A DNA stretch of 64,000 nt, taken from positions 62,001 to 126,000 of the forward strand of contig JAKTTT010000035.1 in NCBI GenBank assembly GCA_030581615.1. The letters run 5' to 3'. The position numbers and the translations under genes are program-made. Below are positions 5,894 through 54,643 of this stretch, piece by piece. Within the stretch, counting starts at the first letter, position 1. Each line of letters starts with the position of its first letter. The notes beneath the pieces are model-generated. The model made no database searches. It had not been told where the DNA came from and worked only from the letters and a program-made list of their open reading frames with translations. This DNA comes from Alloascoidea africana. Taxonomy: Eukaryota > Ascomycota > Alloascoideomycetes > Alloascoideales > Alloascoideaceae.

Positions 5894-8800
5894 ATGAAGA
5901 CAATAACGTTCCCCCAGGCTTTAGCCCAAGCTGCACATTATTCGGCGCTTAAGCCGATTCACATCATCAACATTGTCTCAATTTTGGCCTGTTTTGCATA
6001 TTTGAGCGTTTTCGAGGAATACGTTCCTGAGTTGACAACGCCGAATGCCGTTTCTTTCTACAACCCGGGGGTCTCCACAAGCAGCAGCAGCAGCAACAGC
6101 AACAACAATGGATTATGTGGAGGATTAACGGAAAATCAAACAAGTTGTTGGGTGAAAATGGACGGTAATATGAGTCTCCCACCTGAAGCTCGGCATTATG
6201 CGCTTGCGACTTTCCGATTCACCAGTTCAAGTGGCAGTGGCAGTGGCAGTGGCAGCGGAAGCGGAAATTCCATCTCATTGGGGGGCAATTCCAAAACTTT
6301 AAAGATCCCCAAGGTTCCAGGTACCTTCCACGGCGAATCAGCAAATGAACAGAAATTGGTTCTTCCATATCATGAGAAAGATGGGCTTTTATCACAATTT
6401 TCGGAACTTGGAACCTTATCTTCGCAAACTGTATGGAGACTAAGACCTTACCAAAGTGGACTTTCCTGGTCACAACAGTTGCAAGTAATAGTTACAAAAC
6501 TCACTACGGCTTTTGATAAGATGGATAATTTTGATGTTTTAACGATTGCTTCAGCATATTTTTTGATGATGTATACATTGGCTACATTATTCATTTCGAT
6601 GAAACGGATCGGATCTAGTTTTTCTCTTGCATTTGCAACTATTTTATCAAGTTTTATTTCTCTATTGTTTGCACTTGTTACGGCGAAACAGAATAAAGTT
6701 CACGTTTCACTATCATCATTAACGGAGGGGATGCCATTTTTCGTTGCAACAATTGGTTTCAACAGTAAGATTTTGTTGACGAGAAAGTTTGCAGAGAGAC
6801 AGGCAGAACAACAACAACAACGTGGTAATTCACCATTGTCCATTGCACAGTTGCTCAAATCAGTTGTTGAACAGAATTGTTCCACTATATTACGGGATTA
6901 TTTCATCGAGATTTGTGCGTTTTACGGTTGTTATTCATTTTTAACGACGAAGGATACTTCGAATCTGGGCAAATTTTGCCAATTGTGTTCGTATCTGTTG
7001 ACGTACGATTTGATACTGTTGTTTACATTTTACTCAGCGGTTCTTGGGTTGAAATTTGAGATTTCCAACATTAGGAGAACAGCAGCGATTCGAGAGACGT
7101 TGTTGGAAGATGGGGTTTCAGAAAGTATTGCAAAAAGTGTTGCAAATACTTCTTTTTTGGGAGCATGCACCACCACAGTAGATAAGGACAATAAAAATGT
7201 GGATGAACAACAAGAGAGGGTTGAGGTTGGATGGTTCAACACGGGGTCAAGCGGCAAGAGGGTACTTGGGTTCAAGTTGTTTCTACTGTTTGGGTTTGTT
7301 GCGGTTAATATTTGGAGTGTTTCTACATTGTCATCGGGAACGGGAACGGGAACAGGGACGGGCACGACGAGTGGTGCAGCAGCGGATATGGAGTTTGTGA
7401 ATCTTGGACCGATGGTTTCATTTTTGCCGGAGGAAATCACAAAGCATTTGCCAGTGGGACCCAGAGGCACGGCGGTTACGATTCTACCAGCAATGGTTTA
7501 CAAACCAGCCAAGATTAGTGTTCAGTTTGAGGATATTGTGTACCAGGTGATGAAGCGGGTGAGCCGGGGCATTCGAGATCCGAATCTGAGCAAGATCATG
7601 GTTGTTTTGACTGCGATCAGTTTGTCGCTGAACGGGTATTTGCTGGGGGCCGCGAGAGAGGCTGATGACACGGTGCACGAGGTGAAGCGACGACGGGCGA
7701 GCAGTGCAAGCGGAGCGAGCAGTGCTGGTGCTGGTGCTGGTGCTGGTGCTGGTGCTGGTGGAGCGTCGATAAAGGCCATGAACTCGCTTCCTACTCCTAC
7801 GGTGCCACACTCACAGCCACAGTCGGCGCCACAGCTGGTGGCTCCTACGGTGGCTCCTACGGAGTCACCTTCGGAGACTCTTTCGGAGACTCTGTCGCTG
7901 CGGTTTGACGAGACACGGCCGAGACGAGACACGGACGAGTGCGTTGCTCTGGTGCAATCCGGGGCCGCCGCGAGCCTGACGAACGAAGAGCTGGTGGAGC
8001 TGGCGACGGGCAACAGGCTTCCGCTCTACTCGCTGGAGAAGCAGCTGGGCAGCACGATGCGGGCCGTGGCCGTGCGCCGGGTCGCGCTGTCGCGGATGCA
8101 CCAGCTGGACGTGCTGCAGGACCCGCGGCTGCCGTATCTGGCGTACGACTACGACCGGGTGTTCGGCGCGTGCTGCGAGAACGTGATCGGGTACATGCCG
8201 CTGCCGCTGGGCGTCGCGGGCCCGCTGGACATTGACGGGGCCGCGTTCCACATTCCGATGGCGACGACCGAGGGCTGTCTCGTCGCGAGCACGATGCGCG
8301 GCTGCAAGGCCATCAACGCGGGCGGCGGCGTGACGACCGTGCTGACCCGAGACGGGATGACCCGCGGGCCGTGTGTGTCTTTCCCGTCGCTGGCCCGCGC
8401 GGGACGGGCGAAGCTGTGGCTGGACAGCGCGGACGGCCAGGCCAGCATGAAGGCCGCGTTCAACACAACGTCGCGCTTCGCAAGGCTGCAGCACGTGCAG
8501 ACCGCGATCGCCGGCACGCTGGTCTTCATCCGGTTCCGGACCACGACGGGCGACGCCATGGGCATGAACATGATCTCCAAGGGCGTGGAGCACGCACTGA
8601 GCCAGATGGTCGAGCGCTTCGGATTCGCGGACATGGAGGTCATTTCCGTGTCGGGCAACTACTGCACGGACAAGAAGCCGGCCGCCATCAACTGGATCGA
8701 GGGCCGTGGCAAGAGCGTCGTGGCAGAGGCCACCGTGCCCGGCTCCGTCATCCGCTCCGTGCTCAAGAGCGACGTGGACGCGCTGGTCGAGCTCAACGTG

Positions 8801-9283
8801 AGCAAGAACCTGGTGGGCAGCGCCATGGCCGGCAGCGTGGGCGGCTTCAACGCCCACGCCGCGAACCTGGTCTCCGCCATCTTCCTCGCCACGGGCCAGG
8901 ACCCGGCCCAGAACGTCGAGGCCTCCCAGTGCATCACCCTGATGAAAAACGTCGGCGGCAGTCTCCAGATCTCCGTGTCCATGCCCTGTATCGAGGTGGG
9001 CACCATCGGCGGCGGCACCGTGCTGGAGCCCCAGGCCGCCATGCTCGAGCTGCTGGGCGTCCGCGGCCCGCACCCGACCCACCCGGGCACCAACGCGCGC
9101 CAGCTGGCCCGCGTCGTCGCGGCGGGCGTGCTTGCCGCCGAGCTGTCGCTGTGCGCGGCCCTCGCGGCGGGGCACCTCGTGCAGAGTCACATGGCCCACA
9201 ACCGCAAGCCTGCAGCAGCAGCAGCAGCGACAGCAGCAGCAGCAGCAGCAGCGACAGCAGCAGCAGCAGCAGCAACAAAGTAA
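5894..9283 (+). CDS. HMG1: 3-hydroxy-3-methylglutaryl-CoA reductase
   Basis: A 1129-residue protein of the ER membrane that reduces HMG-CoA to mevalonate with NADPH, the rate-controlling step of sterol synthesis. The N-terminal half has a hydrophobic segment near residues 23-42, a luminal low-complexity loop, and a sterol-sensing-like membrane region from about residue 212. The catalytic domain covers roughly 680-1105 and shows ENVIGYMPLPLGVAGPL (from 762), TTEGC with catalytic Glu793, DAMGMNM, DKKPAAINW with Lys927, GQDPAQN with Asp1003 and LVQSHMAHNR with His1099. It ends in an unusual Ala-rich tail of about 25 residues. Codon use changes sharply: the membrane half is AT-rich, while from about 7.6 kb nearly all third positions are G or C. 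Gly-Ser, Gly-Thr and Gly-Ala dipeptide runs are encoded by hexanucleotide repeats. Length is close to S. cerevisiae Hmg1. Confidence 0.97.
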   Translation: MKTITFPQALAQAAHYSALKPIHIINIVSILACFAYLSVFEEYVPELTTPNAVSFYNPGVSTSSSSSNSNNNGLCGGLTENQTSCWVKMDGNMSLPPEARHYALATFRFTSSSGSGSGSGSGSGNSISLGGNSKTLKIPKVPGTFHGESANEQKLVLPYHEKDGLLSQFSELGTLSSQTVWRLRPYQSGLSWSQQLQVIVTKLTTAFDKMDNFDVLTIASAYFLMMYTLATLFISMKRIGSSFSLAFATILSSFISLLFALVTAKQNKVHVSLSSLTEGMPFFVATIGFNSKILLTRKFAERQAEQQQQRGNSPLSIAQLLKSVVEQNCSTILRDYFIEICAFYGCYSFLTTKDTSNLGKFCQLCSYLLTYDLILLFTFYSAVLGLKFEISNIRRTAAIRETLLEDGVSESIAKSVANTSFLGACTTTVDKDNKNVDEQQERVEVGWFNTGSSGKRVLGFKLFLLFGFVAVNIWSVSTLSSGTGTGTGTGTTSGAAADMEFVNLGPMVSFLPEEITKHLPVGPRGTAVTILPAMVYKPAKISVQFEDIVYQVMKRVSRGIRDPNLSKIMVVLTAISLSLNGYLLGAAREADDTVHEVKRRRASSASGASSAGAGAGAGAGAGGASIKAMNSLPTPTVPHSQPQSAPQLVAPTVAPTESPSETLSETLSLRFDETRPRRDTDECVALVQSGAAASLTNEELVELATGNRLPLYSLEKQLGSTMRAVAVRRVALSRMHQLDVLQDPRLPYLAYDYDRVFGACCENVIGYMPLPLGVAGPLDIDGAAFHIPMATTEGCLVASTMRGCKAINAGGGVTTVLTRDGMTRGPCVSFPSLARAGRAKLWLDSADGQASMKAAFNTTSRFARLQHVQTAIAGTLVFIRFRTTTGDAMGMNMISKGVEHALSQMVERFGFADMEVISVSGNYCTDKKPAAINWIEGRGKSVVAEATVPGSVIRSVLKSDVDALVELNVSKNLVGSAMAGSVGGFNAHAANLVSAIFLATGQDPAQNVEASQCITLMKNVGGSLQISVSMPCIEVGTIGGGTVLEPQAAMLELLGVRGPHPTHPGTNARQLARVVAAGVLAAELSLCAALAAGHLVQSHMAHNRKPAAAAAATAAAAAAATAAAAAATK

Positions 9284-9346
9284 GTAGGGTAACTCTAGTG
9301 GATTAGTCATAGCTCAGTAACACACACACGCTCTCTCTCACGTGCC

Positions 9347-9367
9347 CTGTTTCCTGTTTCCTGTTTC
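9347..9367. repeat. three tandem CTGTTTC heptamers
   Basis: Three perfect 7-bp copies lie between HMG1 and the zinc-cluster gene, about 80 bp before its ATG and next to TCACGTGC (9338-9345). They resemble, but do not match, the pheromone response element TGTTTCA. They could be slippage product or factor-binding sites in the short promoter of the downstream gene. Confidence 0.6.
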
Positions 9368-9445
9368 CTGTACACCCGTGCACCCGCCCCCGTAGCCATT
9401 TCGCCTCCCGCTGCACTAACAAACCACCATCACTCTGCCCATGTC

Positions 9446-12400
9446 ATGACGATGAACCCCAGCCAGCTCCCGCTCCAGCTCCAGCGCCAGCGCCAGCGCC
9501 AACGCCCACGCCAACGCGGACTCGTCCAACTGTCGCCGCCCATGGATCAGACTTCCGCCTCTGATCCCGCTCCTCCTCGTCAACCGCCGGGCTCAGGCTC
9601 AAGCGCAAGCTCGGCAGCATCAGCGTCGGCATCGGCATCGACAGCGGTCTCTGCTTCTGCTTCTGCCTCTGTCTCAGGCCCAACATCCAACTCGAACGAC
9701 CCAAACCCCCCGGCTTATACCCACGCTCCAGGCCGCCATCCGCACCAGAAACGCCGTCCCGTCGCATGCACTTACTGCCATGCCCTCAAGGTCCGATGTA
9801 TCCCCTCCGTCCCCAACGACATCAACTCGCCTTGTATCCGCTGCGTCAAGAGCAACAAAAGATGCATTATTCAGCCAAGCCAGCGGAGAAAGAAAGCCAA
9901 AACTGATTCGTAAGTACGATTTTTCTTCCTTTCTTCTATTTTTCATACAAAGCCTTGACGAATATACCCCATTGAAAAGCAATCTCAACCAAAACACCCC
10001 AAAAAAAAAAAAAAATTGGTGCTAGTCCTGCTTGTGTGTAGGGATCGCCGGATCAAACATTAACAAAACCCCATCAAACTCAATGTTGGGAGCGCAATGG
10101 GCGTCATATACAAGAAAAACAACAAAAAACATAAAAAACTCCCGCTCTCCCCTAACGGTAACTGTAACTATAACAGAAGCACCAACGGCTAACTGCCTCC
10201 AGCGGCGCCGAGAAATACCAAGCCTAGTTACCAACTGGTCGTTTCTCAGCCCTACCATGCCGGCCCGGATATACCCTGCCGTGCACCGACGCTTCAACCT
10301 TCTTGGCTTTGCTTATATTCCATATCCTCAAACCTATTTCCCTACCTTTGTCTTACCCACATTTCTAACCAACGAATCATAATAGTCGCGTTGAAGAGCT
10401 AGAGAAAAAAGTAATGCAGCTGACAGCAGCTCTACAACAGCAGCACCAACAATCTCCAAAGATCCCGCCCTTGCCATGGGCAAACCAGCAACCCCAACCC
10501 CAACCCCAGCCTTTACAACTCTCATCCTCAAATCATCTCCTGCCACAACAACAACAGCAGCAACAACAGCAGCCCCTGGTGGCGCTAAGCGATCAGCTCG
10601 GCATGAACATGAATCTAAACATGCCAATGAACCCTTCCACTCCAACTCCAACTCCACAAATGCATCCTCTCCCCACATCCTCAATCTCAGACTTTTCCTA
10701 CCCACAGCAACAGACAAACCCTGCTGCATCCATGAATCGGCCATCGGTTTCTCTCCCCCCAATCTATCTCAGCCCAGGCACCTCCCAACAACAAAATCAA
10801 GACCCAATCATGCCTTTACAATCTTCCTCAACCACCCCAGGATTCAGGCCTTATGACTACTCCTCCAACCCTGTAGCACTAAACATGAGATACCCTTCCT
10901 CTTTTTCCTTTCTACCTCCATCAACAGGCTCTCCATCAAATGGTACCCCCACTGATACCAATCCTGCACGCAACAATAGCCCTCTCCCAAACCCAAAGTT
11001 GAACAATACTGTTGCTGACCAAATAGGTTTCAAACCGCTGCCTCCTACCCAAATAGCAACCACAACAGCAGCACCCTCTGTCTCGTTTGTACCAACAACA
11101 ACAACATCAACAATAATTTCGGCACAACCCCAGGCTGCTCTAAGATGTTACGATACCAACACTGTGCCTTCGACAATACTAGGCTTGGATATGCCAAACT
11201 CCGATAAAACACCAAATACCTCTACAAGCCTGACAAATGGCTTAACGATGGATTCTTCTTCCCCTTCCACATCCTCCTCATTTGTACAAACCCCTTCCTC
11301 GCAAATCGATGCGGAAGTAGACGCTGAAAGAGCTTTGGAAACCCTTAATGCAACAAGCGCAAAGCTGACAATTTTGGCTGAACGCAGAAGCAAGCTGGTG
11401 ACCGATATCAACTTTTCAAAATTGGTCAGAAATTATGATAGTTCCAATGACGTTATTTCAGGAGGTCTAATGGACGAAACCGAAGCGAGACAGAGGTTTG
11501 AAAACTACAAATCTATACTACACCCCCGATTCCCAGTGGTTGCAATCGATGCCTCGTTTGAGGAATGCCGTAAAGAAACACCAATTTTATTTCTAACCGT
11601 AATGGCTATCACGAACGTAAGCTATGAGTTGCAACAAAAGGAGAAACTGTTTACCAAGCAAACAGACAAATCCAATTCTTCACCATCACAATCTACTGAC
11701 GATCAAAACCAAACTTTTTCTATCGACCATTCTATCAAGATTGAGAGCTTGGCTTTCCAAGTTGTTATATGGGAATTGCTAATCATTGGCAACAAAAATC
11801 TAGAACTGTGCAAATCACTTGTACTACTCACAACATGGTATAATTCAGCAGAAACTTTCCATCAGAGACGATACCACATGTTAGCTGGACTATCTGTCAT
11901 GCTTTCAAACGATTTGGGAATAACATCCAGACTTGTTTCCGCCTATCCTTACGACACACCTCTGAAAGCTCCACAACTAATTACTGAACCAAGCAGCAGA
12001 CCAAATAGAATTTTGGCTCTAAGCATTTACTGTTCTTCACTTTGTGTATGTGTCTCATTACGCAAACCTTTACAAATTTCATGGAATCAATATTTTGAAG
12101 AATGCTGCACTTTGTTAGAATCAGAGGATGCTACACGGTATGAACGAAAAATTGCAGTTTTCAGTAGAATCAACAATGTTCTCGAGCGAATCTATAGATT
12201 ACTCCATGTAGATACAGTTGCGAATTCTAATCAAAATACAAGCACTTTTTTACAACGAGATGAGGATAAAGATAAGGCAACAAGAGAAGAGATTTTGGTC
12301 TTACAAGCAGAACTTGACAAGATTAAAGAAGAAGGTCAAAAGGATTCAAAACAGGGAAACATTCAAGATCGTCCGATAATATCCTATTTTTTTTCGGTAC

Positions 12401-14844: not shown

Positions 14845-15912
14845 TCAATTGTCTCTTTCTTCAGCACCTTCTTCAACATCTTTGGGAAATCGAGGCAAGT
14901 TGGTGGGCCAGTATCGCGTTGGAGGACCGTACCTTTTGACCTTTTTATCCGAATCTTCATCTTCATCTTCATTCTTCTCCACGTTTTTGCCATATCTGGG
15001 CATGTTGGTAGGCCAGTATCGCGTAGGTGGACCATGTCTTTTCACCTTTTCATCCGAATCTTCATCCTCTTCTTCAACATCTTTGGGAAATCGAGGCAAG
15101 TTGGTGGGCCAGTATCTAGTTGGAGGACCGTACCTTTTCACCTTTTCATTCGAATCTTCATATTCCTCCTCTTGTTCAACATCTTTGGGATATCGAGGCA
15201 AGTTGGTAGGCCAGTATCGTGTAGGTGGACCATATCTTTTGACCTTTTCATTCGAATCTTCATATTCCTCCTCTTGTTCAACATCTTTGGGATATCGAGG
15301 CAAGTTGGTAGGCCAGTATCGCGTTGGAGGACCGTACCTTTTGACCTTTTCATTCGAATCTTCATCTTCATCTTCATTCTTCTCCACGTTTTTGCCATAT
15401 CTGGGCATGTTGGTGGGCCAGTATCGCGTAGGTGGACCATGTCTTTTCACCTTTTCATCCTCTTCTTCATCCTCTTCTTCAACATCTTTGGGAAATCGAG
15501 GCAAGTTGGTGGGCCAGTATCTAGTTGGAGGACCGTACCTTTTCACCTTTTCATTCGAATCTTCATATTCCTCCTCTTGTTCAACATCTTTGGGATATCG
15601 AGGCAAGTTGGTAGGCCAGTATCGTGTAGGTGGACCGTATCTTTTTTCCACATCATCCTCACCTTCTTGAACCCCTTCTACATCTTTTCCGAGCTGGGGA
15701 GGTTGATGTGTAGCCCACGGCTCAATTGTATAGCCCTTCTTTTTATCTTGAACCTCATCGATTGTCTTAGTGCCATTCCCAATAACGGTTAACGGTGTAG
15801 TTTTGGTTGGAGGAGTTAATGTAAATGTGTTGGGGTCAACTAGAAACAAGGCTACAATAGGAACCAAGTATATGGACAAGGCACACAAGAGCAACGAAAG
15901 CTTTGATGCCAT
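14845..15912 (-). CDS. secreted Kex2-processed tandem-repeat peptide precursor
   Basis: A 355-residue protein begins with a hydrophobic signal-like segment (about residues 4-25), then a 65-residue pro-region with one N-glycosylation sequon (Asn46). From residue 92 there are eight near-identical units of 32-35 residues (the last is 28 and ends the protein). Units begin YGPPTRYWPTN or HGPPTRYWPTN, continue [L/M]PR-[YF/YG]-PK/GK-[D/N]VE, then a Glu/Asp-rich spacer, and seven end in KVKR. One further KR precedes unit 1. Lys-Arg is the site of the Golgi protease Kex2, so maturation should release eight peptides, as from alpha-factor precursors. The core has no similarity that I recognise to known yeast pheromones, and no Ste13-type Xaa-Ala spacers are present. 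Residues 60-79 (GYTIEPWATHQPP...GKDVE) look like a worn ninth copy. A TATA-like element lies near 15990, about 80 bp upstream. Alternatives: a fungal Kex2-processed repeat protein of unknown role, or a surface-active or antimicrobial peptide. Confidence 0.85.
   Translation of the reverse strand: MASKLSLLLCALSIYLVPIVALFLVDPNTFTLTPPTKTTPLTVIGNGTKTIDEVQDKKKGYTIEPWATHQPPQLGKDVEGVQEGEDDVEKRYGPPTRYWPTNLPRYPKDVEQEEEYEDSNEKVKRYGPPTRYWPTNLPRFPKDVEEEDEEEDEKVKRHGPPTRYWPTNMPRYGKNVEKNEDEDEDSNEKVKRYGPPTRYWPTNLPRYPKDVEQEEEYEDSNEKVKRYGPPTRYWPTNLPRYPKDVEQEEEYEDSNEKVKRYGPPTRYWPTNLPRFPKDVEEEDEDSDEKVKRHGPPTRYWPTNMPRYGKNVEKNEDEDEDSDKKVKRYGPPTRYWPTNLPRFPKDVEEGAEERDN
14848..15639 (-). repeat. ~96-105 bp coding tandem repeat, eight units
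   Basis: Reading in the gene's direction, the units fall into three classes: A (NLPRYPKDVEQEEEY), B (NLPRFPKDVEEE) and C (HGPP...NMPRYGKNVEKNED). The order is A-B-C-A-A-B-C-B. DNA identity between same-class units is very high, including shared silent variants, so the array grew by recent duplication of single and triple units or is kept uniform by gene conversion. Confidence 0.9.
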
Positions 15913-16856
15913 TATTCTTTATCCCTTTTACTTTCAGTCGTTCTTTCCACTTGGAATCAGAGAAAGAAGAAAAAAACGAAGAACAGGAATATATAAATGT
16001 CTTGGATATACCTGACAGGCCGGAACATGTCCTGATCGATTAAACTCAGGGTCGTATGGTCTCTTATTTTCTGTTAGTTAGTGTCTCACCGCAAAACTAT
16101 ACAAATCGGCTAGCGCGGAAAAAGAGAACTCAGTTCATTTAGGCTCAATTTTTTGTTGCCTCTCTTCATTAAAACTAATCTAATCTTCGGGATTATTCAA
16201 ACTTCATTATATTGCTCACCATAATACGTTTACCATATACAACAAAGTCAAAACTTTTGGTGTGGAAAAGATTTACCGACCTAACGTGTTGAAATAATAG
16301 GTATACACGGAATCAAAAGAAGTTGAGGTACAGTTTTGTTCAACCGTGATGTCATGAACGTTGGAGAGTTGAGGACCAAATTTGAGAAGATTTTAGAGTT
16401 GATCCACAGTATGTTGTGCAAGGCCACAATTAATCGCAAACAACGGATCAATCAAGGACTCATAGGGCAAACACAATCCAAGACATGCCCTCCGTTCGGA
16501 AAGTCCCTTTAAAGGCGAAAAATCTTAAACATAGCAATAAATGATTTGTTACCCACTAACAATGAACTCTTGCTCTTTATGACCTTTAGTTAGACCACAA
16601 TAGCTGCTATCATTACACAATCACTAGTAAAACACACATTTCTTGCTTTTCAAAATTACATTTTTTTTTTGTTTTGTCTTTCCTTTTGGCTAGTAAACCA
16701 AATTATGAACAAGCTAGATAAAAGCAATCGTAACCTAACTGGTGATCAGCAAAAACAACAATAGTAATAATAGCGATAGAAATGAATGAAATCATACTAA
16801 CTAAGGCAATAATAGGTGAAGGATTAAGTCCGAGGATTGGGAATGTAGATCTTCCA
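15913..16856. other. intergenic interval, promoter of the repeat-peptide gene
   Basis: Upstream region of the repeat-peptide precursor and 3' region of the hydantoinase-family gene. TTATATATTC on the minus strand near 15988-15998 is a likely TATA box. I found no perfect pheromone response element (TGAAACA). No other gene is visible. Confidence 0.55.
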
Positions 16857-19800
16857 CTAAACGCTAGCGTATTCATCAATAACACTCTTCGGCTCAACAT
16901 ACTCTCCGATAGGTTTATATTCAACCTCGTCAAAACCAAAGGCCGAAGGTCCTCCAATTTTGATTCCCTTTGGTGTATTAGTCCACAGTTTGCTAGGCGC
17001 AATTGCAAGCACGAAAACGAGAAGACCATATCTATACTCTGGTGTCCCCACAGCTTCACCAGTGTCTGTGTCTATAACGGAGATCAGATCGGGAACAGAA
17101 CAAATGACCTTGCCAGTTGTATCTGCTTTGCTTTCATGTAGTCTTGCATAGATATTTTCATTTTTGAATGGAATCTTCAGCTGTCTTGGAGACTCCAATT
17201 CCTCAATTGTAACTTCTCCATAGATGTAACCTTTTTGCAACTTCTTCTCTACCCCGACAATTTTACCTCTAAAGAGTATTTTGGCGGATTTTGGACCGCC
17301 AACAGCTTCGATTATCTGTTTTGGGAGCTGGTCTATTTGACTCTTTTGTCTCGCCAACCGCACTGCTCTCCCCACTCGCCATGCCAAAGAAGTAGTGTTT
17401 ATAACGCTCATCGTGCGAAGCTCTTCCGCGGTCATCGGTGGATTCACGACTCCAACATCAGCACCAAGCTCAGAAAGCGCAGCTCTTATGATGTTTTCTA
17501 AATGAACATCAGACTTGGCACTGGAGATTAGCAAATCGTTCCCGTTTCCATCGCTCATAACCGAGGGCGCAAAGAAAGGCTCCTCTTTCTGAACAACGGG
17601 AATTGTCTGCCATAGAGTTGGATAGGCTCTCCCCATGAGATCAGCATCCACAGAGGGTATATTCAACTTTGCGTTGCTTGAGCATATCATACCTTGAAAC
17701 CCATTACCTCCACCAATTTCAAGTGAAATAACGGCCTCAGGCTTCTTACCAATATACCTTGCCAGCAAGTTATAGGCGTGCATCAGCTCATCACCTTGTA
17801 ATTTCTCATGAGACACAGTTGGCGAGCCAGCATGCCCAACAGAAATGATGGCACCTTTGCCAGAAATATGTCTTTCCAAGTCTTTTGCATCAATAACCCG
17901 CAGAGTATTTCCTGCCCTCAAATGGTTTCGCGCCTGTAAGAATTTGGAATATGGCTGACCTCCTCCTCCAGTGCCCAGTATATATGCACCAATGTTGATA
18001 AACTCCAAGTCCGTCTCTGAAATGATCCATTCCCTATTCGAGTTAATAAAAGGCTTGTAACTCGGAATGTCGAGCTGTTCTTTTGGCTTTTCAGCTTTCT
18101 TGTTCTTTTTGAACTGGGGAGGCTTGGAATTTAAGAAAGTATCATCATAGGGCTTCAGGGCCTCTTGATGGAAGGCTTTTTGCATGCTGCTGTAATCAAT
18201 ATCACCCACTACCTTGACGTAAAAAGAGATTGTGTTGGGGACATAAGGAACGGGCTCGCTGACCAAGTCAACAACCACTATGGAGTTGGGCAGTCCTCCT
18301 TTCGCGATTGCTTCTTCGATGGCCTGATTCTTCAACTCTGTCGTTATTTTGTCTTTTATAAACGAATCTCCTCCTCCGGGAAGCACCTTATAGGTTGTAG
18401 CCTCTGCTGATATTTTTCCAATCGCTGCACCGATTGCATTTGCAACGCCAAAGAATGGAGGCCTCAAGACTTTGGAGGCTCCTTGGAGCGTTGGTGGTAC
18501 GATAAAAGAGCCACCTCCAACGAGCAATACTGGTATAGGATCTGGAGAAGTCTTCATTCTATCGATTACTTTCTCCACCATCCTTTTCAGCGTGTCCGAG
18601 TACTGCGATTTGAAAGAGGGCTTAAATCTTCCTTCAACTTTTGTGTAATCGCCAATCGAATACAAATGCTCTCTGTCTTCGTCGGCATGTTCCTCTGTGC
18701 CAATGGCTACACTAACATCAGAGGTTGTCACCGTATTTCCACCAAAAAGAATTGCTCTTGTCACAATCTCGCTGTCCACCGAGTCTGGACCAATTGTTAT
18801 GCTTTTGTCCACACCATTGCCGCGTACAATTGATCCACCACCCAGACCAATACTCTCCGTGTGGACCATTGAAAAATTCATTCGCACTCCACCAACAACC
18901 GAGAAGGACGAAGACTGCCTGGGAAATCCAGTGGCCAGCAACATTCCCACATCGGTGGTGGTTCCACCGACATCGACCACCATGACAGGTTTTCCGCGGA
19001 TTTCCTCTTCTTTGGAGCACAGAAAAGCGGCTCCTCTCATGGAGTTTGTGGCTCCTGAAGAGAACGTTCTGATGGGCGTTTCCGCAGCTTCTTCTGTGGT
19101 GAGCACTGTGCCATCGTTCTGAGTCAAAAGAATCGGACAGTTCAGTCCCAGCCGTTTCACGGCAGACTTGAAAGAAGCAATTATATTGGTCGCAAAATAC
19201 TTCATCGAGGCATTTAGAATCGAGGCATTCTCTCGTTCTAAGAATCCAACACCAGAGACCTTGTGCGATAACACGATTCGAACATCTGGCCCTAGCTCCT
19301 CTTCCACAATCTTGCCAACGAGCTTTTCATGAGAAGAATTGATTGAGGAGAATATCCCCACAATGGCAACGGCTCGCACTCCCAGGTCCCGGATCTTGGC
19401 GCAGTGCTCTCTTACTTCCTGCTCATCTATGGGTGCAATCTCTTGACCATCAATGTGGAACCCTCCTTTCAGATAGCCAATGTATCCATTCAGAATTTCA
19501 GTCAGCCCATCTGGAAAGTCCGAGAAAGGGCCCGATTCACGGGAGTAGGGCCCGGTCAGCCTCAGGACCGCTACTTTTTCCAGTCTCCCGCTGTCCTGCT
19601 CGATGACCGCATTGATAAAGTGAGTCGTGCCGATAGTCACCACCGTGACATCATCTTTGGACACTCCATGGGACTCTGAATTCGAGAAGAGGGTACTGAT
19701 TGCCGTTTCTATCCCTATAGAAACGTCAGGGGTAGTTATCGACTTGTTCCAGGCAAGCACCCCACGGTTAGGTTCGTTAAAGTGATGCGGATCTAGAAGG

Positions 19801-19865
19801 ACTGAGTCTGTGTTTGTGCCTCCAACATCGACTCCGATAAGCAACTGCCGGTTCGCCTGTGTCAT
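16857..19865 (-). CDS. hydantoinase/5-oxoprolinase-family protein fused to DUF917 domain
   Basis: A 1002-residue protein starting MTQANRQLL at 19865; the frame stays open upstream, but only with non-ATG codons (TTG at 19898). The N-terminus shows the ASKHA phosphate-binding motif LIGVDVGGTNTDS, followed by the HydA-type region, a second motif VVDVGGTTTDVGML and GGGSFIVPP. This is the ATP-dependent hydantoinase A / 5-oxoprolinase A fold. From about residue 610 (SETDLEFINIGAYILGTGGGG) the sequence matches the DUF917 type, which in prokaryotes is often a separate gene beside hydantoinase subunits. The family cleaves cyclic imides or lactams with ATP; the substrate here is unknown. It could use 5-oxoproline, hydantoins or a related compound. 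The gene is intact and its base composition is normal for the window. Confidence 0.85.
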   Translation of the reverse strand: MTQANRQLLIGVDVGGTNTDSVLLDPHHFNEPNRGVLAWNKSITTPDVSIGIETAISTLFSNSESHGVSKDDVTVVTIGTTHFINAVIEQDSGRLEKVAVLRLTGPYSRESGPFSDFPDGLTEILNGYIGYLKGGFHIDGQEIAPIDEQEVREHCAKIRDLGVRAVAIVGIFSSINSSHEKLVGKIVEEELGPDVRIVLSHKVSGVGFLERENASILNASMKYFATNIIASFKSAVKRLGLNCPILLTQNDGTVLTTEEAAETPIRTFSSGATNSMRGAAFLCSKEEEIRGKPVMVVDVGGTTTDVGMLLATGFPRQSSSFSVVGGVRMNFSMVHTESIGLGGGSIVRGNGVDKSITIGPDSVDSEIVTRAILFGGNTVTTSDVSVAIGTEEHADEDREHLYSIGDYTKVEGRFKPSFKSQYSDTLKRMVEKVIDRMKTSPDPIPVLLVGGGSFIVPPTLQGASKVLRPPFFGVANAIGAAIGKISAEATTYKVLPGGGDSFIKDKITTELKNQAIEEAIAKGGLPNSIVVVDLVSEPVPYVPNTISFYVKVVGDIDYSSMQKAFHQEALKPYDDTFLNSKPPQFKKNKKAEKPKEQLDIPSYKPFINSNREWIISETDLEFINIGAYILGTGGGGQPYSKFLQARNHLRAGNTLRVIDAKDLERHISGKGAIISVGHAGSPTVSHEKLQGDELMHAYNLLARYIGKKPEAVISLEIGGGNGFQGMICSSNAKLNIPSVDADLMGRAYPTLWQTIPVVQKEEPFFAPSVMSDGNGNDLLISSAKSDVHLENIIRAALSELGADVGVVNPPMTAEELRTMSVINTTSLAWRVGRAVRLARQKSQIDQLPKQIIEAVGGPKSAKILFRGKIVGVEKKLQKGYIYGEVTIEELESPRQLKIPFKNENIYARLHESKADTTGKVICSVPDLISVIDTDTGEAVGTPEYRYGLLVFVLAIAPSKLWTNTPKGIKIGGPSAFGFDEVEYKPIGEYVEPKSVIDEYASV

Positions 19866-25905: not shown

Positions 25906-26917
25906 ATGCCAAATTATCAGGACCTTCTTCCAGCTTCGGGTGCGTGGAAACAGGATGTGACAAATTGGCTTTCTGAAGACATCCCCTCTTTTGACTTTGG
26001 TGGATTTGTCGTCGGGGACAGTATAAAAGAAGCCACTCTTCTTTGCAAGCAAGAGGTATGCTTTGTGACCATTGTAACGGTATTCCCAATTCTCACTCTT
26101 GTGCCATGAATTAGGGTGTTCTTGCTGGTGTTCCTTTTGCCCAAGAAGTCTTTGACCAGTGCAAATTGACCGTAACTTGGAACTACAAAGAGGGAGAACA
26201 TCTTGATCCCGCGAAAATTGGCAAAAACGGTAAAGTTGCCGTAGCACATGTTAAAGGCCCGGTGAAGAACATTTTGATTGCCGAGAGAACTGCACTGAAT
26301 ATTTTGGCAAGAGCTTCTGGAATAGCTACTCAGTAGGTCTTGATTTTGACTTTTTAGCTGATCTGCACAGCGAACTAACGACCATTGGCAGGTCAAATAA
26401 GGTCATCTCTCTGGCAAGAAAGAGCGGATACCAGGGCATCATTGCGGGTACCAGGAAAACCACCCCGGGGCTACGACGGTTGGAGAAGTACGCGATGCTT
26501 GTTGGCGGTGTCGACACTCACCGATACGATTTGTCCTCAATGGTGATGCTCAAGGACAATCATGTGTGGGCTACGGGCTCGATCACAAAGGCCGTCCAAA
26601 ACGCGAGATCTGTGTGCGGTTTTGCCATGAAGATCGAGGTCGAATGCCAGTCCGAAGACGAAGCTAACGAGGCCATCGCGGCGGGTGCCGACGTGGTGAT
26701 GCTGGACAACTTTGTGGGAGAGGGACTAAAGGTAGCAGCCGCCAGTCTAAGACAAAAATGGGCCGGAAAACGCCAGTTTCTGATCGAATGTAGCGGTGGA
26801 CTGAGACTGGAGAACTTGGAGCAATACCTGTGCTCTGATGTCGACATTTACTCGACGTCTTCGATCCACCAGGGCACTGGCGTGGTAGACTTTAGCTTGA
26901 AGATAAACCGGGATTAA
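25906..26917 (+). CDS. BNA6: quinolinate phosphoribosyltransferase, three exons
   Basis: Exons 25906-26055, 26115-26332 and 26392-26917 join to 297 codons. Both introns are 59 nt; the second has donor GTAGGT and branch GAACTAACG. The protein converts quinolinate and PRPP to nicotinate mononucleotide in de novo NAD synthesis. Family motifs are [57 protein letters not shown] (substrate-binding Arg/Lys), [15 protein letters not shown], and the barrel-end strands DVVMLDNF and IECSGGL. Length equals the family norm (about 295). The next gene, APC10, starts only 67 bp after the stop on the same strand. Confidence 0.96.
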
Positions 26918-42723: not shown

Positions 42724-43387
42724 CTGAATCAATGTGACCACAATAGCCTGCTCTCAGAGTGCAAAAATTATGGTTCTGAAAAAAATGAAATTAGATACTA
42801 TTGTTTCCAAAACTGCGTCAACTTGCTCACATTGCTGGACAAACCGTATAAAGGCTTTACTTCAAAATGTATACGCTTTTCAAAACTTGAAGTTGGGCGA
42901 TGAGAAAAAAAGATATTGAAAAGTCTCAAGCCCTACGAACACCCGTACACCACATCAGTCAATTGACTTACCCTGTCTTAAGGTGTGTGGGTGTACTAAG
43001 GTGGGAATGCGTGCCTTGCATATTCTATTTTTAGAATAATTACATAACATCTGAGTAACCAGACGTCCTCATGTTTTTGGCTTCTCTCGCTCCTCCCACT
43101 CTTCCTGCTCATCTTCACCACCCACTAGGCCCCAGTCTTAACCATATTTCTCCACACTGTGGTTGTCTGATCATTATTGTTGACTGTCAGATCTGTCTGA
43201 TGCATATTGGCTTTTAATCCCGTGGTACAAAGCTATAATATATTTCGCAAACATAGCAACTGCTTCTCACCAGTTCTTTTCCCCTTACTCTATTTTATCC
43301 ATTTTACATCTGCCTGTGGAGTATCAACGCTTTTCTTTCCTGATTCTTCCTTCATTTAGTATCATATCTGATTAATCATAATCTATC
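42724..43387. promoter_or_regulatory. divergent promoter region, MDN1/RLM1
   Basis: About 0.66 kb between divergent genes. Apart from the Rlm1-type site at 43025-43034 and a TATAATATAT near 43231-43240 (candidate TATA of RLM1) no other element is clear. Confidence 0.5.
43025..43034. promoter_or_regulatory. MEF2/Rlm1 binding site in the RLM1 promoter
   Basis: CTATTTTTAG fits CTA(A/T)4TAG, the consensus of the Rlm1 MADS factor, exactly. It sits in a longer palindrome ATTCTA-TTTT-TAGAAT, 354 bp before the RLM1 ATG. This suggests autoregulation; the site is seen, the regulation is inferred. Confidence 0.6.
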
Positions 43388-45351
43388 ATGGGTCGAAGAA
43401 AAATTGCTATTAAACCTTTGACAAACGAGCGTAACAGATCTGTGTAAGTTTCTTCGATGTTTGACATCATTGTCGCGTTCTGTTGAAATTGAGACTAATT
43501 TGTTGGTTTTTTTAGTACATTTGTCAAAAGAAAAGCCGGACTGTTCAAAAAGGCTCATGAATTGGCGGTTTTGTGCCAGGTTGATTTAGCAGTAATAATT
43601 TTTGGTCCAAATGATCGTGTTTATGAATTCTCGTCTGTGGACGTACAGGAGATTATCGACAATTATGGCAAGGCACGTTTGCGCTTTATGTTTTTTACAC
43701 TCTTTTCCTATTACTGACTTTACTATTATTGTAGATTGTGGCTCCTTTCGAAGCGAAGAAACCTACCGATTACGACCCTTCGATTACAGATCTGAGTTGG
43801 AAAAGCAATAACAGATCTGAATACGTTTCGAAACACGACGAAAATGCCGACGACTTGGGTCAAGAAAGCGACGAAGAAAGCTCACAGGATGAGGAGGACA
43901 ATAATAGTGATGAAGACGCAAAGTTTTCTAAGGGTCATCGAAAGCAAAAGTCTACTTCAAAAGCTTCAAAGAATATACCGAAACGGCAAACTCATCAACA
44001 TAAAGTCTCACGGACGCATTCTAGAACCAGCAGTTGTTCCAGTGTAACCAGCAATAAAGTAAAATCAGAGAAAATAGAATCCATTCGAATGAACTCTAAT
44101 TATCAATTTCCAAGACCAGAAAACTCAAATTCCTTACCTTCATATAGCCAATATCCTAATGATGGAAGAGTATTGACTCAGCCATACCATCGTCAATCCC
44201 CGCCAACCCAGTACCAGCAACTATCGCATGATAAATCTAGAGGCGAATCAAGAAACAATACACCAAGGCTTCCTACAACATCGCTGCATGTCCGAACCAC
44301 ATCAAATCAATCGTTGCAAGCTAATCTACCCATTTCTCATCATCATCCAAACGTTCCGTCTCCATTTCCACCACCTGCATCACTTCTGAGCTCGTCAAAT
44401 AATCCCAGTGTAAGCAACTTTCGACCAAAGTTGAAAGTTCAGATACCAGGAATGCCAAACCCTCCATTACCCACAACTCAGGCTAGCTCGGAATCTAAAA
44501 GTAGCGAAGCATCGTCATCAATATCGAACCCTGAAACCACTCAGAGAGAGGGAGAAACCTCCAACGTTCCATCGATTACTGGACCAATGATGCCTTTACC
44601 CAGTATAAGCACCAATATGACCGTAGCAGATACTTCCAATTCAATACAACAGAATAACGGCAATCTAATGGGCCATGGTAATCCAGCTCCAATGCATCCT
44701 TCAAATGTTTCTATGCAAAAGTCACCACTTTCTGCTTCAGCATCTGGTGGGCCGTTCTTTGTTCTTCCTCAGCCGTCACCCTCTTTCCAAACTCTCAACG
44801 GAACTCCGTTTACAAAGCTCGCAATGTTTAGTGGTGTCAATAATGGCGGTGAACAGACCCCAATAAGTGGCCTACCCAGCCGCTATATCAATGATTTGCT
44901 GCAAAGCCCGAGCAATTTTTATAGCAATGACTGGAACATTCCATTTGGTGCAAACCCAAATTCTTCAACAACTGGGCCTGGTGGGATTGCTGGATTATCC
45001 ATTATTACGCCTACGAATTACACTGCAAACAATGTGGTATCGAATCAGACCAATGCTAGTGGTAGTAACTTGGTTGGCAATAATAGTGGGACAAACGGAA
45101 TAACCCGTCTTCCGCCAAGGACATCACATTTATCAAATATGGAACAGGTACCTTCTCCGTCACAGGCTTCTGGTGGAGTAATGATGGCTTCCATAAATCC
45201 CGCTGTGTCTACAAGCATGGTGACATCAGTACCAGGAAATGCATCAATAAATCAGAAAGATGATTCGGGTAGGGATAGCACGAACAACGGTATGAAACGT
45301 GGAGCAACGGATACTGCTGAGGGGAATACAAAAAAACCAAAATATGAATAA
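43388..45351 (+). CDS. RLM1: MADS-box (MEF2-type) transcription factor Rlm1, three exons
   Basis: Exons 43388-43443, 43516-43672 and 43735-45351 join to 609 codons. Intron 1 is GTAAGT...TTTTAG. Intron 2 appears to begin with GC (AAG|GCACGT) and ends ATTGTAG after a TTACTGAC branch point; no GT donor in the right phase gives a sensible product except GTACAG at 43643, which would cut the conserved [10 protein letters not shown] stretch. The MADS box reads [49 protein letters not shown], and [15 protein letters not shown] follows, typical of Rlm1/Smp1. The remainder is acidic then Ser/Pro/Asn-rich and disordered. Rlm1 is the target of the Slt2/Mpk1 cell-wall-integrity MAP kinase. Confidence 0.9.
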
Positions 45352-48300
45352 ACTAAGTCCGCCTCCTACCTTTATTTGAACCGCTTTTCGTCGTGTTAAG
45401 GACTCTCATCAATTATCCTATTTACTTGTTCATAATACCAAAGATATGTCGTTTTGGATATTTTTATTAAGTTACATGATGAAAGATTGTTGTGTCATGA
45501 ACAGAAAAACTTGATTTCGCTTTACCTGTTTTTGATCATGTTGGAATATATTATGATGTTGGACTGAGGAGAGTATGGGACAAAACTCCTATTTTCCAAC
45601 TTTTTCGTTCTTTTGTTTGGCCTCTTCCCTCGAGATAGATATGATGGCTTGTAACAATCTTATGATCACTCTCCAAAGTCAGCTTCCCTTTTATCTGCCC
45701 TCTTTTCCCCTATCTCAGGTACAGTATGTTTTTTTTCTTGTTATCTCATTCTTTATTTTTTCAGAATAGCATTTTTTATTCTTTGGTTTGTTTACATAAA
45801 TCACCCTAAAGAAAATTGTTTATTAATTTTGAGCATTTTTGTATGGATCCATGTCTTGCTCATTCTTTTCTTTCATTATAAGAATAGGACGCGCTTTAAC
45901 TTGATTGTATTTTTACATCTTCTACGTCAGTTATTCTAGAAATTGGACGACAATCGTATTTCAATATTATGCCACATTAATAGTTACCTTTAGTGTATTG
46001 ACTGAAGGGTATGATACTTTGTTTAAACAATAATTTATGCTCAACTTGGTAAGCCATTTTAAGCATCATCCAACTCACTACAAAAACTGGCACATTTAGA
46101 TATGAATTTCTTGGTCACTTTATACAATAATAATGCGAAATAGTTCTTAGATAGAGTATTAAAGGCTATTAGTTCGCCTCCATGGCTACCGAAATGGAAC
46201 ATAGATTACTTCTGCCACCTTAAGAAGTGTCGAACGTGAGTGGGAATGAATACAGACGCCTTTGTAGGTACTAAGCATTCACCAAGAATTAGAAATGATC
46301 ATTCCCATTTCCGTAGCAGTAAGTACACTCAAACCTGTTCTCACATATTGATATTTTCTCAAATTTCTTGTTCCAATATGTATGCTCATCATTAAATACA
46401 CTGAGACTTTCTTGTTTGAAACAAAACTGTTTGATTGGCCCCATCATCGGATTTTGTTGAAAGCAAAAAACGAGGAATGGATTCAGCAACAAAATCATCA
46501 AAAATGATTGCTGAACTACTCTAGCAATTTTTTTTTTATAGATGACTTTGTAGACAAGTGTTAACATTTCAGGTTCTTTCTTTGGCAGAAATGGTGGGGA
46601 TAAAGTTATGTCAACTGAAAACTGTCAAACTTAAAATGCTAGTCCATGCTACTATTTTTTCTTAAGCCATCAAACCTACCGAATATAGTTTGACTTGGTT
46701 CGGTGAAGCATTTAAACCCCAAAAAAACAAAACATTGTGAAGAATATCGTGTTATCGGTCGGACCCTCCAGTTTTGCCCAAACAAGAGCTTGTGTCAAAG
46801 TACAGACAACGCACCGCTTAATGATCAAACTTCGTTGAGCATGCCAGTTAGACAATTGGTTGGCCATCTAGCCCTGGCCTAATCAAGGAACATGGATCGC
46901 TCGCTTCAGCCTGCTTGTAATCTTTCTGAACACGAAGGTCAGCAAGATGTAGAATTAGCAATCTCTTAAACTTCTTCTACTTAGCCTAAAACCAAGCCCA
47001 GATAGTTGCTAGGTCTTACAAAAGTTATCTGAAGCTATTTATTGGATGAGCAAAATACCTGACTATCTCACAAACGATCTCTTTCACAATACGCCTCCAA
47101 AATCTTTTGAAGTTCTTCAAACCAAATATGTGCGGAAATGTTTTACACCTAGGTTACAGCATAAGATACGTTGTAGCCGTGTGACTTTTGTATTGCCCGC
47201 TACGACCTAATCATACAAATTAAGGCCATGCAACACGCACTCACAACTGTATGTTAACTCTGCGTGATGAAACCCATCAATTGCTGACAAAAAACCCAAA
47301 GAAGATACAGTGGAAGAATGACGATTCGCAAGAGACCATGAGAAAATGAACCGCCACCTTTAGTTGCTCAAGAAAATGTGGCCTCGGTTGAACTGGAGTA
47401 GGGGAGGATAATGAAGGCTTTCCTTATTTTGAACGTACGATGGTAAGTCGTGTTTGTAGTCAGCATTGTAAATCTTTGTGATAAAAGTAGCAATTCTTTT
47501 GCATACAAAGGCAAAAGGGACAGGCAAATACAGACTCTAAAAGTTGAGAACACCTTGTATAGTATGTTGACAAATAACTCCAGGAAACACAGCTGACCTG
47601 ATTCCCTGCATTCTTGCGTAGACTACTGAGAATCATGCTTTACTTGGGAAGAATGGCTTATGACAACATCAACAAATTTTATCAAAGAGTACAGTTTTGT
47701 GTTAATTGGTTCTCTACCATCTCATCTATGATAAATATACCACATGAATATTTTATTAAACAAGTTACCTTTTTACTTTCCTCGGGCAAAAGAGCTCAAA
47801 TCTTCACTGAAAAACTTAAACCTGAAGCAGATATCTGGATCGGGACCGCAGAATTTTATGTATGTGTCTCTTAAACTTAATCGTTTTCACCTAGTTCAGA
47901 TGGTGAGAAAATAATCCGATCATAAACAACTGGTGATTATAATTTGAATCACGCTTTGTTTGTATTACTTTGCAAGCCTTAAAAACAAGTTTTTGCAACG
48001 AATCTGACACTGGTCCAGGATCAGGAGAATGTGATAGTTTCCAAGTATCCTCTTTGATGCAGATCTTTATTATAACGCTCCGTTAAGATTTGGCCGTCTT
48101 TGGAACTATACGCGTCCTACAGCATTAATGAAGCTGTTAACAATGTGTTTCTCTGACTAGGAGACCATCTTTTCAAAATTGAAAAATCAACCTGCATGGT
48201 CGGAAATTAATACACCTTGTATCTGAGAATCCGGCTCCTTAGTAGGGTAATAACGAATCGTATCTGGAGGGAATTTAGCCTATATGTGGGCTCAGAAGGT

Positions 48301-51224: not shown

Positions 51225-51385
51225 TACATTAATCGCAAACTATTTCTTGGAAAGAGGTAGATATCAAGAGACTCAAGCGGAATTTCTTCAGCAAGTGGCT
51301 TAGCAAAGATATTTTCCAAACAACGATTTATGTAAAAGCTCACTTCAGCAACTATATGATTCTGAGAAGAATGTCAAGCAAGATT
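51225..51385 (-). mobile_element. possible fossil of a Ty1/copia-type retroelement (RNase H end)
   Basis: A short minus-strand translation contains ENIFAKPLAEE, which resembles the ADIFTKPL signature near the end of copia-type Pol, preceded by a HIV...FYI stretch like the region before it. The element, if real, is old and broken, with only a small piece recognisable; no terminal repeats are visible. Chance similarity is quite possible. Confidence 0.25.
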
Positions 51386-54300: not shown

Positions 54301-54547
54301 CCAACACCGCCTGATTGTTTTATCGCTCTACCATCCTCCATCTTGACCCGCGACCACGATGTGGCGTTTTGGATCAGGCACTATGCATACTTTGGAGATT
54401 GGCGAGAGCAAATCTAGGTGTCTGTCCAAACGCAGTAATGTGCACACGCAGATGTATTCTGCCTCTACATCCAGGCTGCAAGAAGGAGGAGCGGTGCAGC
54501 GAGCGCCCTGATCCAGGATTAAAGCTCTGGGTTCCGGCGAGAGCTCT

Positions 54548-54555
54548 TATAAAAT
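54548..54555 (+). promoter_or_regulatory. TATA box of IRA
   Basis: TATAAAAT lies 96 bp upstream of the IRA ATG at 54644, a normal distance for a yeast core promoter. Confidence 0.5.
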
Positions 54556-54643
54556 TACTGATTCTCCTCCAAGTTTCTTTATCCTTCCCCTTTTATAGAC
54601 TCTTTGTGCTTTACAGGTTATCTAATTCCTAGTCTTCTCCAAG

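What the first reader, a model, noticed from the sequence alone, without database searches (positions are those of the whole stretch)
14845..15912. A secreted precursor for eight copies of an unfamiliar Kex2-released peptide
The protein has a signal-like start and eight units beginning [Y/H]GPPTRYWPTN, each closed by KVKR except the last, which ends the protein. This is the architecture of alpha-factor and of fungal Kex2-processed repeat proteins, but the peptide core is not a pheromone I recognise and Ste13-type spacers are missing. Each predicted product has an aromatic/proline head with arginines and a strongly acidic tail. It could be a mating, quorum, surface or antagonistic peptide.
Basis: partly seen in the sequence, partly recalled or inferred. 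Interest (0 to 1): 0.78.

Follow-up and report, generated by a model that had tools for sequence, protein, structure and literature searches.

The report
Yeast precursor of eight secreted peptides
A budding-yeast gene encodes a probably secreted precursor made of eight near-identical peptides, most likely cut apart by the Kex2 protease; it is a new example of a known class of fungal peptide precursors, and what its peptide does is unknown.

Summary
The 355-codon frame at 14845-15912 (minus strand) encodes a signal-like helix, a short pro-region and eight units [YH]GPPTRYWPTN..., seven closed by KVKR, with KR before every unit. I added three points. (1) The frame is really coding: across the eight units the 11-residue head differs almost only at synonymous positions (pN/pS 0.04; 1 of 8 minimal changes replaces a residue), and codon usage fits the window's genes in this frame but not in three overlapping frames scored. 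(2) A degenerate ninth unit lies just upstream at 15640-15735. (3) The array grew by block duplication: units 1-3 match units 5-7 at 296 of 303 bases. [quoted passage not shown] the signal peptide rests on heuristics and cleavage is untested. It has no alpha-factor Pfam match and no Ste13 signature. Tyr or His after KR is a poor Kex2 context in published data. I found no credible homologue, but no eukaryotic genome collection could be searched. Best reading: a linear secreted signalling peptide; that function is inferred and weakly supported.

The parts
14845..15912 (-). Precursor gene, 355 aa plus stop
   Evidence: ORF; coding-frame tests
15850..15912 (-). Putative signal peptide, residues 1-21; the cleavage point after A21 is my inference by the -3/-1 rule (recalled), not the output of a tool
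   Evidence: hydrophobic peak; helix 3-24 in the model
15736..15849 (-). Pro-region, residues 22-59, with one N-glycosylation sequon at N46; ends in KKK
15640..15735 (-). Degenerate unit 0, residues 60-91 (W.T..P...KDVE...ED..EKR)
   Evidence: alignment A1; 1, 2 and 3 of 2000 shuffles reach its score against units 1, 2 and 3
15538..15639 (-). Unit 1, 34 aa, ends KVKR
15442..15537 (-). Unit 2, 32 aa, ends KVKR
15337..15441 (-). Unit 3, 35 aa, H-type, ends KVKR
15235..15336 (-). Unit 4, 34 aa, ends KVKR
15133..15234 (-). Unit 5, 34 aa, ends KVKR
15037..15132 (-). Unit 6, 32 aa, ends KVKR
14932..15036 (-). Unit 7, 35 aa, H-type, ends KVKR
14848..14931 (-). Unit 8, 28 aa, no closing dibasic site, ends the protein
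15989..15995 (-). TATA-like element TATATAT, 83 bases upstream of the ATG

Best explanation
The gene encodes a Kex2-processed repeat protein (KEP). Inferred steps: the N-terminal helix targets the precursor to the ER and is removed; in the late Golgi, Kex2 cuts after the KR in front of each of the eight units; Kex1 trims the C-terminal basic residues, leaving linear cysteine-free peptides of about 28-33 residues that start [YH]GPPTRYWPTN and end in an acidic tail. The aromatic/proline head is the selected part and the tail is a variable acidic spacer. Most likely the head acts as a diffusible signal read by a receptor, in the manner of alpha-type pheromones and other peptide hormones, with many copies per precursor to raise the dose. 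Shown here: frame, repeats, KR sites, constraint on the head, block duplication, no cysteine outside the signal region. Inferred: secretion, cleavage, trimming, signalling. I hold the architecture at about 0.85 and signalling as the function at about 0.4.
For: Eight units of 28-35 aa with KR before each. Cutting in silico at KR/RR gives 9 fragments, and the shortest closed unit times 8 is 72% of the protein. Head pN/pS is 0.042 over 11 codons in all 28 pairs of units; 8 minimal changes (counted by me from the codons) with 1 nonsynonymous, against an expected nonsynonymous fraction of 0.75, gives binomial P 0.0004 (duplicated units share changes, so P is rough). KR occurs 7 times from unit 1 on, against a mean of 2.3 in 2000 shuffles, maximum 8. 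The only cysteine is C10. No second hydrophobic stretch: the best 19-residue window starting at residue 26 or later averages 0.06. The single-sequence model has low confidence from residue 40 on and no second helix or strand. DUF3328 cyclisation proteins are reported absent in the class Saccharomycetes, whose KEPs are thought to be secreted linear (PMC7329392, passages).
Against: Processed Kex2 substrates favour acidic or small residues at P1', P2' and P4' (PMC2515848, passages), and Tyr at P1' gave the lowest Venus secretion in Pichia, nearly 13-fold below Ser, although the pattern depended on the protein (PMC3777899, passages); here P1' is Tyr or His. No homologue shows conservation between species. 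No TGAAAC element lies in the 944 bases upstream. There is no receptor, expression or peptide evidence. Low divergence inside the head could partly reflect recent duplication or gene conversion. One antisense frame also has pN/pS below 1 (0.29).
Confidence: 0.5

Rival explanations
1. It is this species' alpha-type mating pheromone precursor in a much diverged form.
For: Same gross architecture. The Trichomonascus vanleenenianus paper (PMC13130702, passages) assigned an MF-alpha by the same criterion (repeated Kex2 sites in secretory proteins of no known function), with repeats that may mature to IYGEPGW, and quotes GYGEPNW for Yarrowia. Our head YGPPTRYW and unit 0 GYTIEPW resemble these loosely. 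CTG is read as Leu and introns look frequent here, which would allow a yeast of that broad region.
Against: No MF_alpha or MF_alpha_N Pfam match at E 1 or E 10 (HMMER's filters drop most matches above about 0.1). No Ste13 signature in 8 of 8 sites. Units of 28-35 aa against 9-24 for alpha pheromones (PMC6339444). The resemblance is post hoc and weak: 186 of 5000 (GYGEPNW, pro-region), 358 of 5000 (GYGEPNW, unit 1), 412 of 5000 (IYGEPGW, unit 1) and 1795 of 5000 (IYGEPGW, pro-region) shuffles score as high. The Yarrowia-group genomes tabulated in PMC13130702 have 47.5-49.4% G+C, above most of this window.
Confidence: 0.2
2. The peptides are structural components of the cell surface, as for Rep1 of Ustilago maydis.
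For: Rep1 has ten conserved repeats separated by Kex2 sites (PMC2515848) and no Ste13 signature (PMC6339444).
Against: Rep1 peptides are described as amyloid-forming (PMC9769878 passage) and amphipathic (reference title). Here the tails have 6-10 acidic residues of 11-14, and the one-sequence model shows no strand.
Confidence: 0.15
3. The product is the cationic 17-residue Pro/Arg/aromatic head (net +3), freed from its acidic tail at the conserved lysine by a yapsin-type protease, and acts against competing microbes. The acidic tail masks it in the precursor.
For: Charge is split sharply within each unit: head +3 in 8 of 8 units, pI 9.99 for the unit-1 17-mer, tail acidic. K17 is invariant in all nine aligned units. 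Insect proline-rich antimicrobial peptides are also encoded as pre-pro-polyproteins (PMC11549390, start of abstract in the listing).
Against: No dibasic site separates head from tail. No activity data. Yapsin cleavage here is recalled knowledge and was not modelled.
Confidence: 0.12
4. The repeat is a fast-evolving low-complexity secreted protein that is not cut, with dibasic sites carried along by the repeat.
For: Unfavourable P1' residues; repeats spread by recent block duplication.
Against: KR is kept in front of all eight units although the tails vary in length and sequence.
Confidence: 0.1

Closest known systems
KEX2-processed repeat proteins (KEPs), Le Marquer 2019 (PMC6339444) and Umemura 2020 (PMC7329392)
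   Same: Signal-like start, three or more tandem repeats of 8-100 aa bounded by dibasic sites, repeats filling most of the protein
   Different: Repeat sequence not found in the searched library (four strings, 0 papers); the supplementary KEP tables of those papers could not be opened. Acidic spacer at the C-terminal side of the head and none after KR
Ascomycete alpha-type pheromone precursors (MF-alpha), e.g. Yarrowia and Trichomonascus vanleenenianus
   Same: Secreted multi-copy precursor with KR between copies; loose YG.P...W resemblance
   Different: No Pfam MF_alpha match, no Ste13 dipeptides, longer units, acidic stretch on the opposite side of the peptide
Ustilago maydis Rep1 repellent precursor
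   Same: Conserved repeats separated by Kex2 sites, no Ste13 signature
   Different: Acidic, apparently disordered units rather than amphipathic fibril formers; no longer terminal fragment unlike the repeats
Candida albicans Ece1 and CA0365
   Same: Yeast polypeptide precursors with several Kex2 sites (PMC2515848 passage)
   Different: Ece1's repeats are described there as less conserved and CA0365 as having only three; units here are nearly identical and hydrophilic. CTG is read as Leu here, so the window is not from the CTG-Ser clade to which C. albicans belongs (recalled)

Membership tests
KEP | N-terminal signal peptide (SignalP in the defining papers) | tested here: inconclusive
   Hydropathy and model heuristics positive; SignalP not available
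KEP | No transmembrane segment after the signal peptide (TMHMM, Le Marquer) | tested here: met
   Hydropathy proxy only: best 19-aa window starting at residue 26 or later averages 0.06; TMHMM itself not run
KEP | At least 4 fragments after cutting at KR or RR (Le Marquer) | tested here: met
   9 fragments
KEP | At least 3 repeats of 8-100 aa between dibasic sites (Umemura) | tested here: met
   8 repeats of 28-35 aa, 7 of them closed by a dibasic site; my version of the 40-aa seed scan was only approximate (124 of 334 positions over 0.6)
KEP | Repeats at least 15% of protein length (Le Marquer) | tested here: met
   0.72
KEP | Actual cleavage by Kex2 | not testable with these tools
   Needs peptidomics; P1' residues unfavourable
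alpha-type pheromone precursor | Pfam MF_alpha or MF_alpha_N | tested here: not met
   No match at E 1 or E 10
alpha-type pheromone precursor | Ste13 signature XA or XP directly after KR | tested here: not met
   YG x6, HG x2, so 0 of 8
alpha-type pheromone precursor | Mature peptide of 9-24 aa | tested here: not met
   Units 28-35 aa, unless a further cut occurs
alpha-type pheromone precursor | Pheromone motif of related yeasts | tested here: inconclusive
   Weak, post hoc: 186, 358, 412 and 1795 of 5000 shuffles score as high in the four comparisons
alpha-type pheromone precursor | Mating-type-specific expression and a Ste2 ligand | not testable with these tools
   No TGAAAC upstream, one Mcm1-like CCTTTAAAGG at -603 (motif names recalled)
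Rep1-type surface peptide | Amyloid-like peptides on the cell surface | not testable with these tools
   Acidic composition and strand-free model argue against

The most novel reading that the evidence does not exclude
A lineage-specific yeast peptide hormone or antagonistic peptide made in a mirror image of alpha-factor: Kex2 sets the N-terminus directly, a variable acidic spacer sits at the C-terminal side, and a second, monobasic cut at the invariant lysine frees a cationic 17-residue head used for communication or competition outside the mating system.
Probability: 0.15. Interest if true: 0.72.

Novelty: new member of a known kind. Interest (0 to 1): 0.42.

Why it matters
KEPs average only 1.35 per strain in Saccharomycetes and most of those are annotated alpha-factors (PMC7329392, passages). 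A non-alpha-factor example whose head shows purifying selection between its own copies is therefore a good candidate for a non-mating yeast peptide signal. It gives exact masses to look for: 3927.823, 3663.701 and 3930.787 Da for trimmed units 1, 2 and 3, and 2105.085 Da for the 17-residue head.

Tried and rejected
Homologue searches. In viral contigs the precursor had 600 pattern matches and the nine-unit alignment 17, none confirmed. The alignment in genome contigs gave 1 confirmed locus of 1 candidate, L001 in a Pseudomonas record, 10 residues at 90% identity; I take it as a chance match and did not read its DNA. Plasmids by tblastn: none. PDB: none at E 1. Pfam: only TRH at E 1.9, not significant. 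NCBIfam: none. The DNA collections are viral, bacterial/archaeal and plasmid, so their silence says little about fungi.

Other dead ends. Rfam and ARAGORN gave nothing to place the organism. The own-genome search was impossible because no genome is held. A literature search for four strings of the core peptide found 0 papers; searches for yeast KEPs outside mating were unproductive, except that led to PMC13130702.

Rejected readings. The overlapping ORFs: three of four score negative by codon usage, and five other frames show a higher or undefined pN/pS. Cyclised ustiloxin-type product: not favoured, as DUF3328 proteins are reported absent in Saccharomycetes; Pfam was run on the precursor and 6 other predicted window proteins and showed none; the rest of the window's proteins were not scanned.

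Full report
What is there. The minus-strand ORF 14845-15912 encodes 355 residues. It consists of a hydrophobic start, a pro-region of about 38 residues with one N-glycosylation sequon, a degenerate unit 0, and eight units beginning [YH]GPPTRYWPTN. Every one of the eight is preceded by KR; seven of eight end KVKR. Tandem Repeats Finder reports the array at 14868-15645, with a 405-bp period matching at 97%.

Is it coding? Because the units are multiples of three, four other ORFs of 91-278 codons overlap the array, so openness is no evidence. Two tests separate the frames. Over the first 17 codons of all eight units (28 pairs; one codon fewer in shifted frames), pN/pS is 0.17 in the stated frame, against 1.42 and 2.39 in the other sense frames and 1.16, 0.29 and no synonymous change at all in the antisense frames. 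Codon usage learned from eight window genes scores +44.0 for this frame and -6.1, -45.1 and -6.9 for three of the four overlapping ORFs; the 91-codon ORF was not scored. The antisense frame at 0.29 is also below 1, which I read as a by-product of third positions coinciding; it is a point against a clean separation.

Where is the constraint? In the first 11 codons pN/pS is 0.042. Codons for P3, P4, T5, R6 and P9 vary, including CGA/AGA, while the residues do not; the only replacement is Y to H at position 1. One nonsynonymous change of 8 minimal changes has binomial probability 0.0004, a rough figure because duplicated units share changes. The tails differ in length and residues but stay acidic: 6-10 D/E of 11-14. 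Comparisons of tails within same-type units are too few to measure (4 synonymous and 0 nonsynonymous differences among units 1, 4, 5; 0 and 3 between units 2 and 6; 0 and 2 between units 3 and 7).

How did it arise? Units 1-3 and 5-7 match at 296 of 303 bases; units 1 and 5 at 99%, 2 and 6 at 97%, 3 and 7 at 97%. So a block was duplicated recently. Unit 0 shares W.T..P...KDVE and a closing KR with the others; 1, 2 and 3 of 2000 shuffles of the pro-region reach its alignment score against units 1, 2 and 3. Part of that score comes from acidic composition.

Secretion. The N-terminal 15-residue hydrophobic peak (2.63) is reached by 1 of 98 ATG ORFs of 60 aa or more, presumably this one. No second hydrophobic segment exists. 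AlphaFold2 on the single sequence has mean pLDDT 47.9, with one helix at 3-24 and no other helix or strand; with one sequence this is weak evidence. SignalP was not available.

Processing. KR before each unit fits Kex2. Against this, processed Kex2 sites favour acidic or small residues at P1', P2' and P4' (PMC2515848, passages), and in Pichia Tyr at P1' gave the lowest Venus secretion, nearly 13-fold below Ser, though the pattern depended on the protein (PMC3777899, passages). Here P1' is Tyr or His, P2' Gly, P4' Pro. So cleavage may be slow or partial, or the species' enzyme may differ.

Organism. The large protein at 27885-42719 matches Midasin entries (that the best entries are S. cerevisiae and the weaker long one S. 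pombe is recalled). Of 15 CTG codons before codon 1250, by eye in the alignments, 10 stand opposite Leu and 1 each opposite Ser, Ile, Phe, Arg and Asn. CTG is therefore read as Leu and this is not the CTG-Ser clade. At least three genes show frame breaks that I bridged by eye with introns, which looks frequent for a budding yeast; PMC13130702 (passages) gives 15% intron-containing genes for Yarrowia, nearly 25% for Trichomonascus vanleenenianus and 35% for Geotrichum candidum. The G+C of those genomes (47.5-49.4%) is higher than most of this window. The species remains unknown.

Is it alpha-factor? Not by membership: no Pfam MF_alpha match, no Ste13 signature in 8 of 8 sites, and units longer than 9-24 aa. 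A loose likeness to GYGEPNW and IYGEPGW, seen in PMC13130702, was found after the fact and is weak (186, 358, 1795 and 412 of 5000 shuffles in the four comparisons). That paper assigned its MF-alpha by the same architecture, so the pheromone reading stays open at about 0.2.

What is it, then? It meets the repeat criteria of KEPs as read in PMC6339444 (results, discussion part 1 and pipeline sections) and PMC7329392 (abstract, passages and the detection section); the signal-peptide criterion is inconclusive here. KEPs are numerous (7878 in 1345 of 1461 strains), and PMC9769878 calls most of unknown function (passage), but they average 1.35 per strain in Saccharomycetes, mostly alpha-factors. 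This is a new member of a known kind. The constrained head with a more variable tail fits best with a recognised ligand; the function is inference.

What is not shown. No eukaryotic genome collection, peptide data, expression data or supplementary KEP table could be consulted. That the peptide is unpublished rests only (0 papers holding any of four core strings in the held library).

Noticed in passing
7250-9750: A GC-rich island (0.50-0.756 in 250-base steps; 0.34-0.41 just before it and 0.44-0.51 just after) spans the catalytic half of an HMG-CoA reductase gene and the first exon of the next gene, a zinc-cluster-like factor (that name is recalled from its motif). It crosses a gene boundary, which suggests a local mutational or conversion bias rather than one foreign gene.
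   Followed up: partly
45400-54900: A stretch of about 9.5 kb with no ATG ORF of 150 aa or more and low GC (0.35-0.37 over most of it), without internal repeats of 30 bases or more; it could be a regional centromere or hold non-coding genes.
   Followed up: partly
43380-43800, 25960-26200, 9900-10420: Apparent spliceosomal introns in a MADS-box gene, a quinolinate phosphoribosyltransferase-like gene and the zinc-cluster factor gene, by eye from translations; gene names recalled.
   Followed up: no
16857-19865: The neighbouring gene on the same strand is a hydantoinase/oxoprolinase family protein that also carries S-Me-THD-like domains (Pfam PF05378, PF01968, PF06032, PF20906).
   Followed up: no
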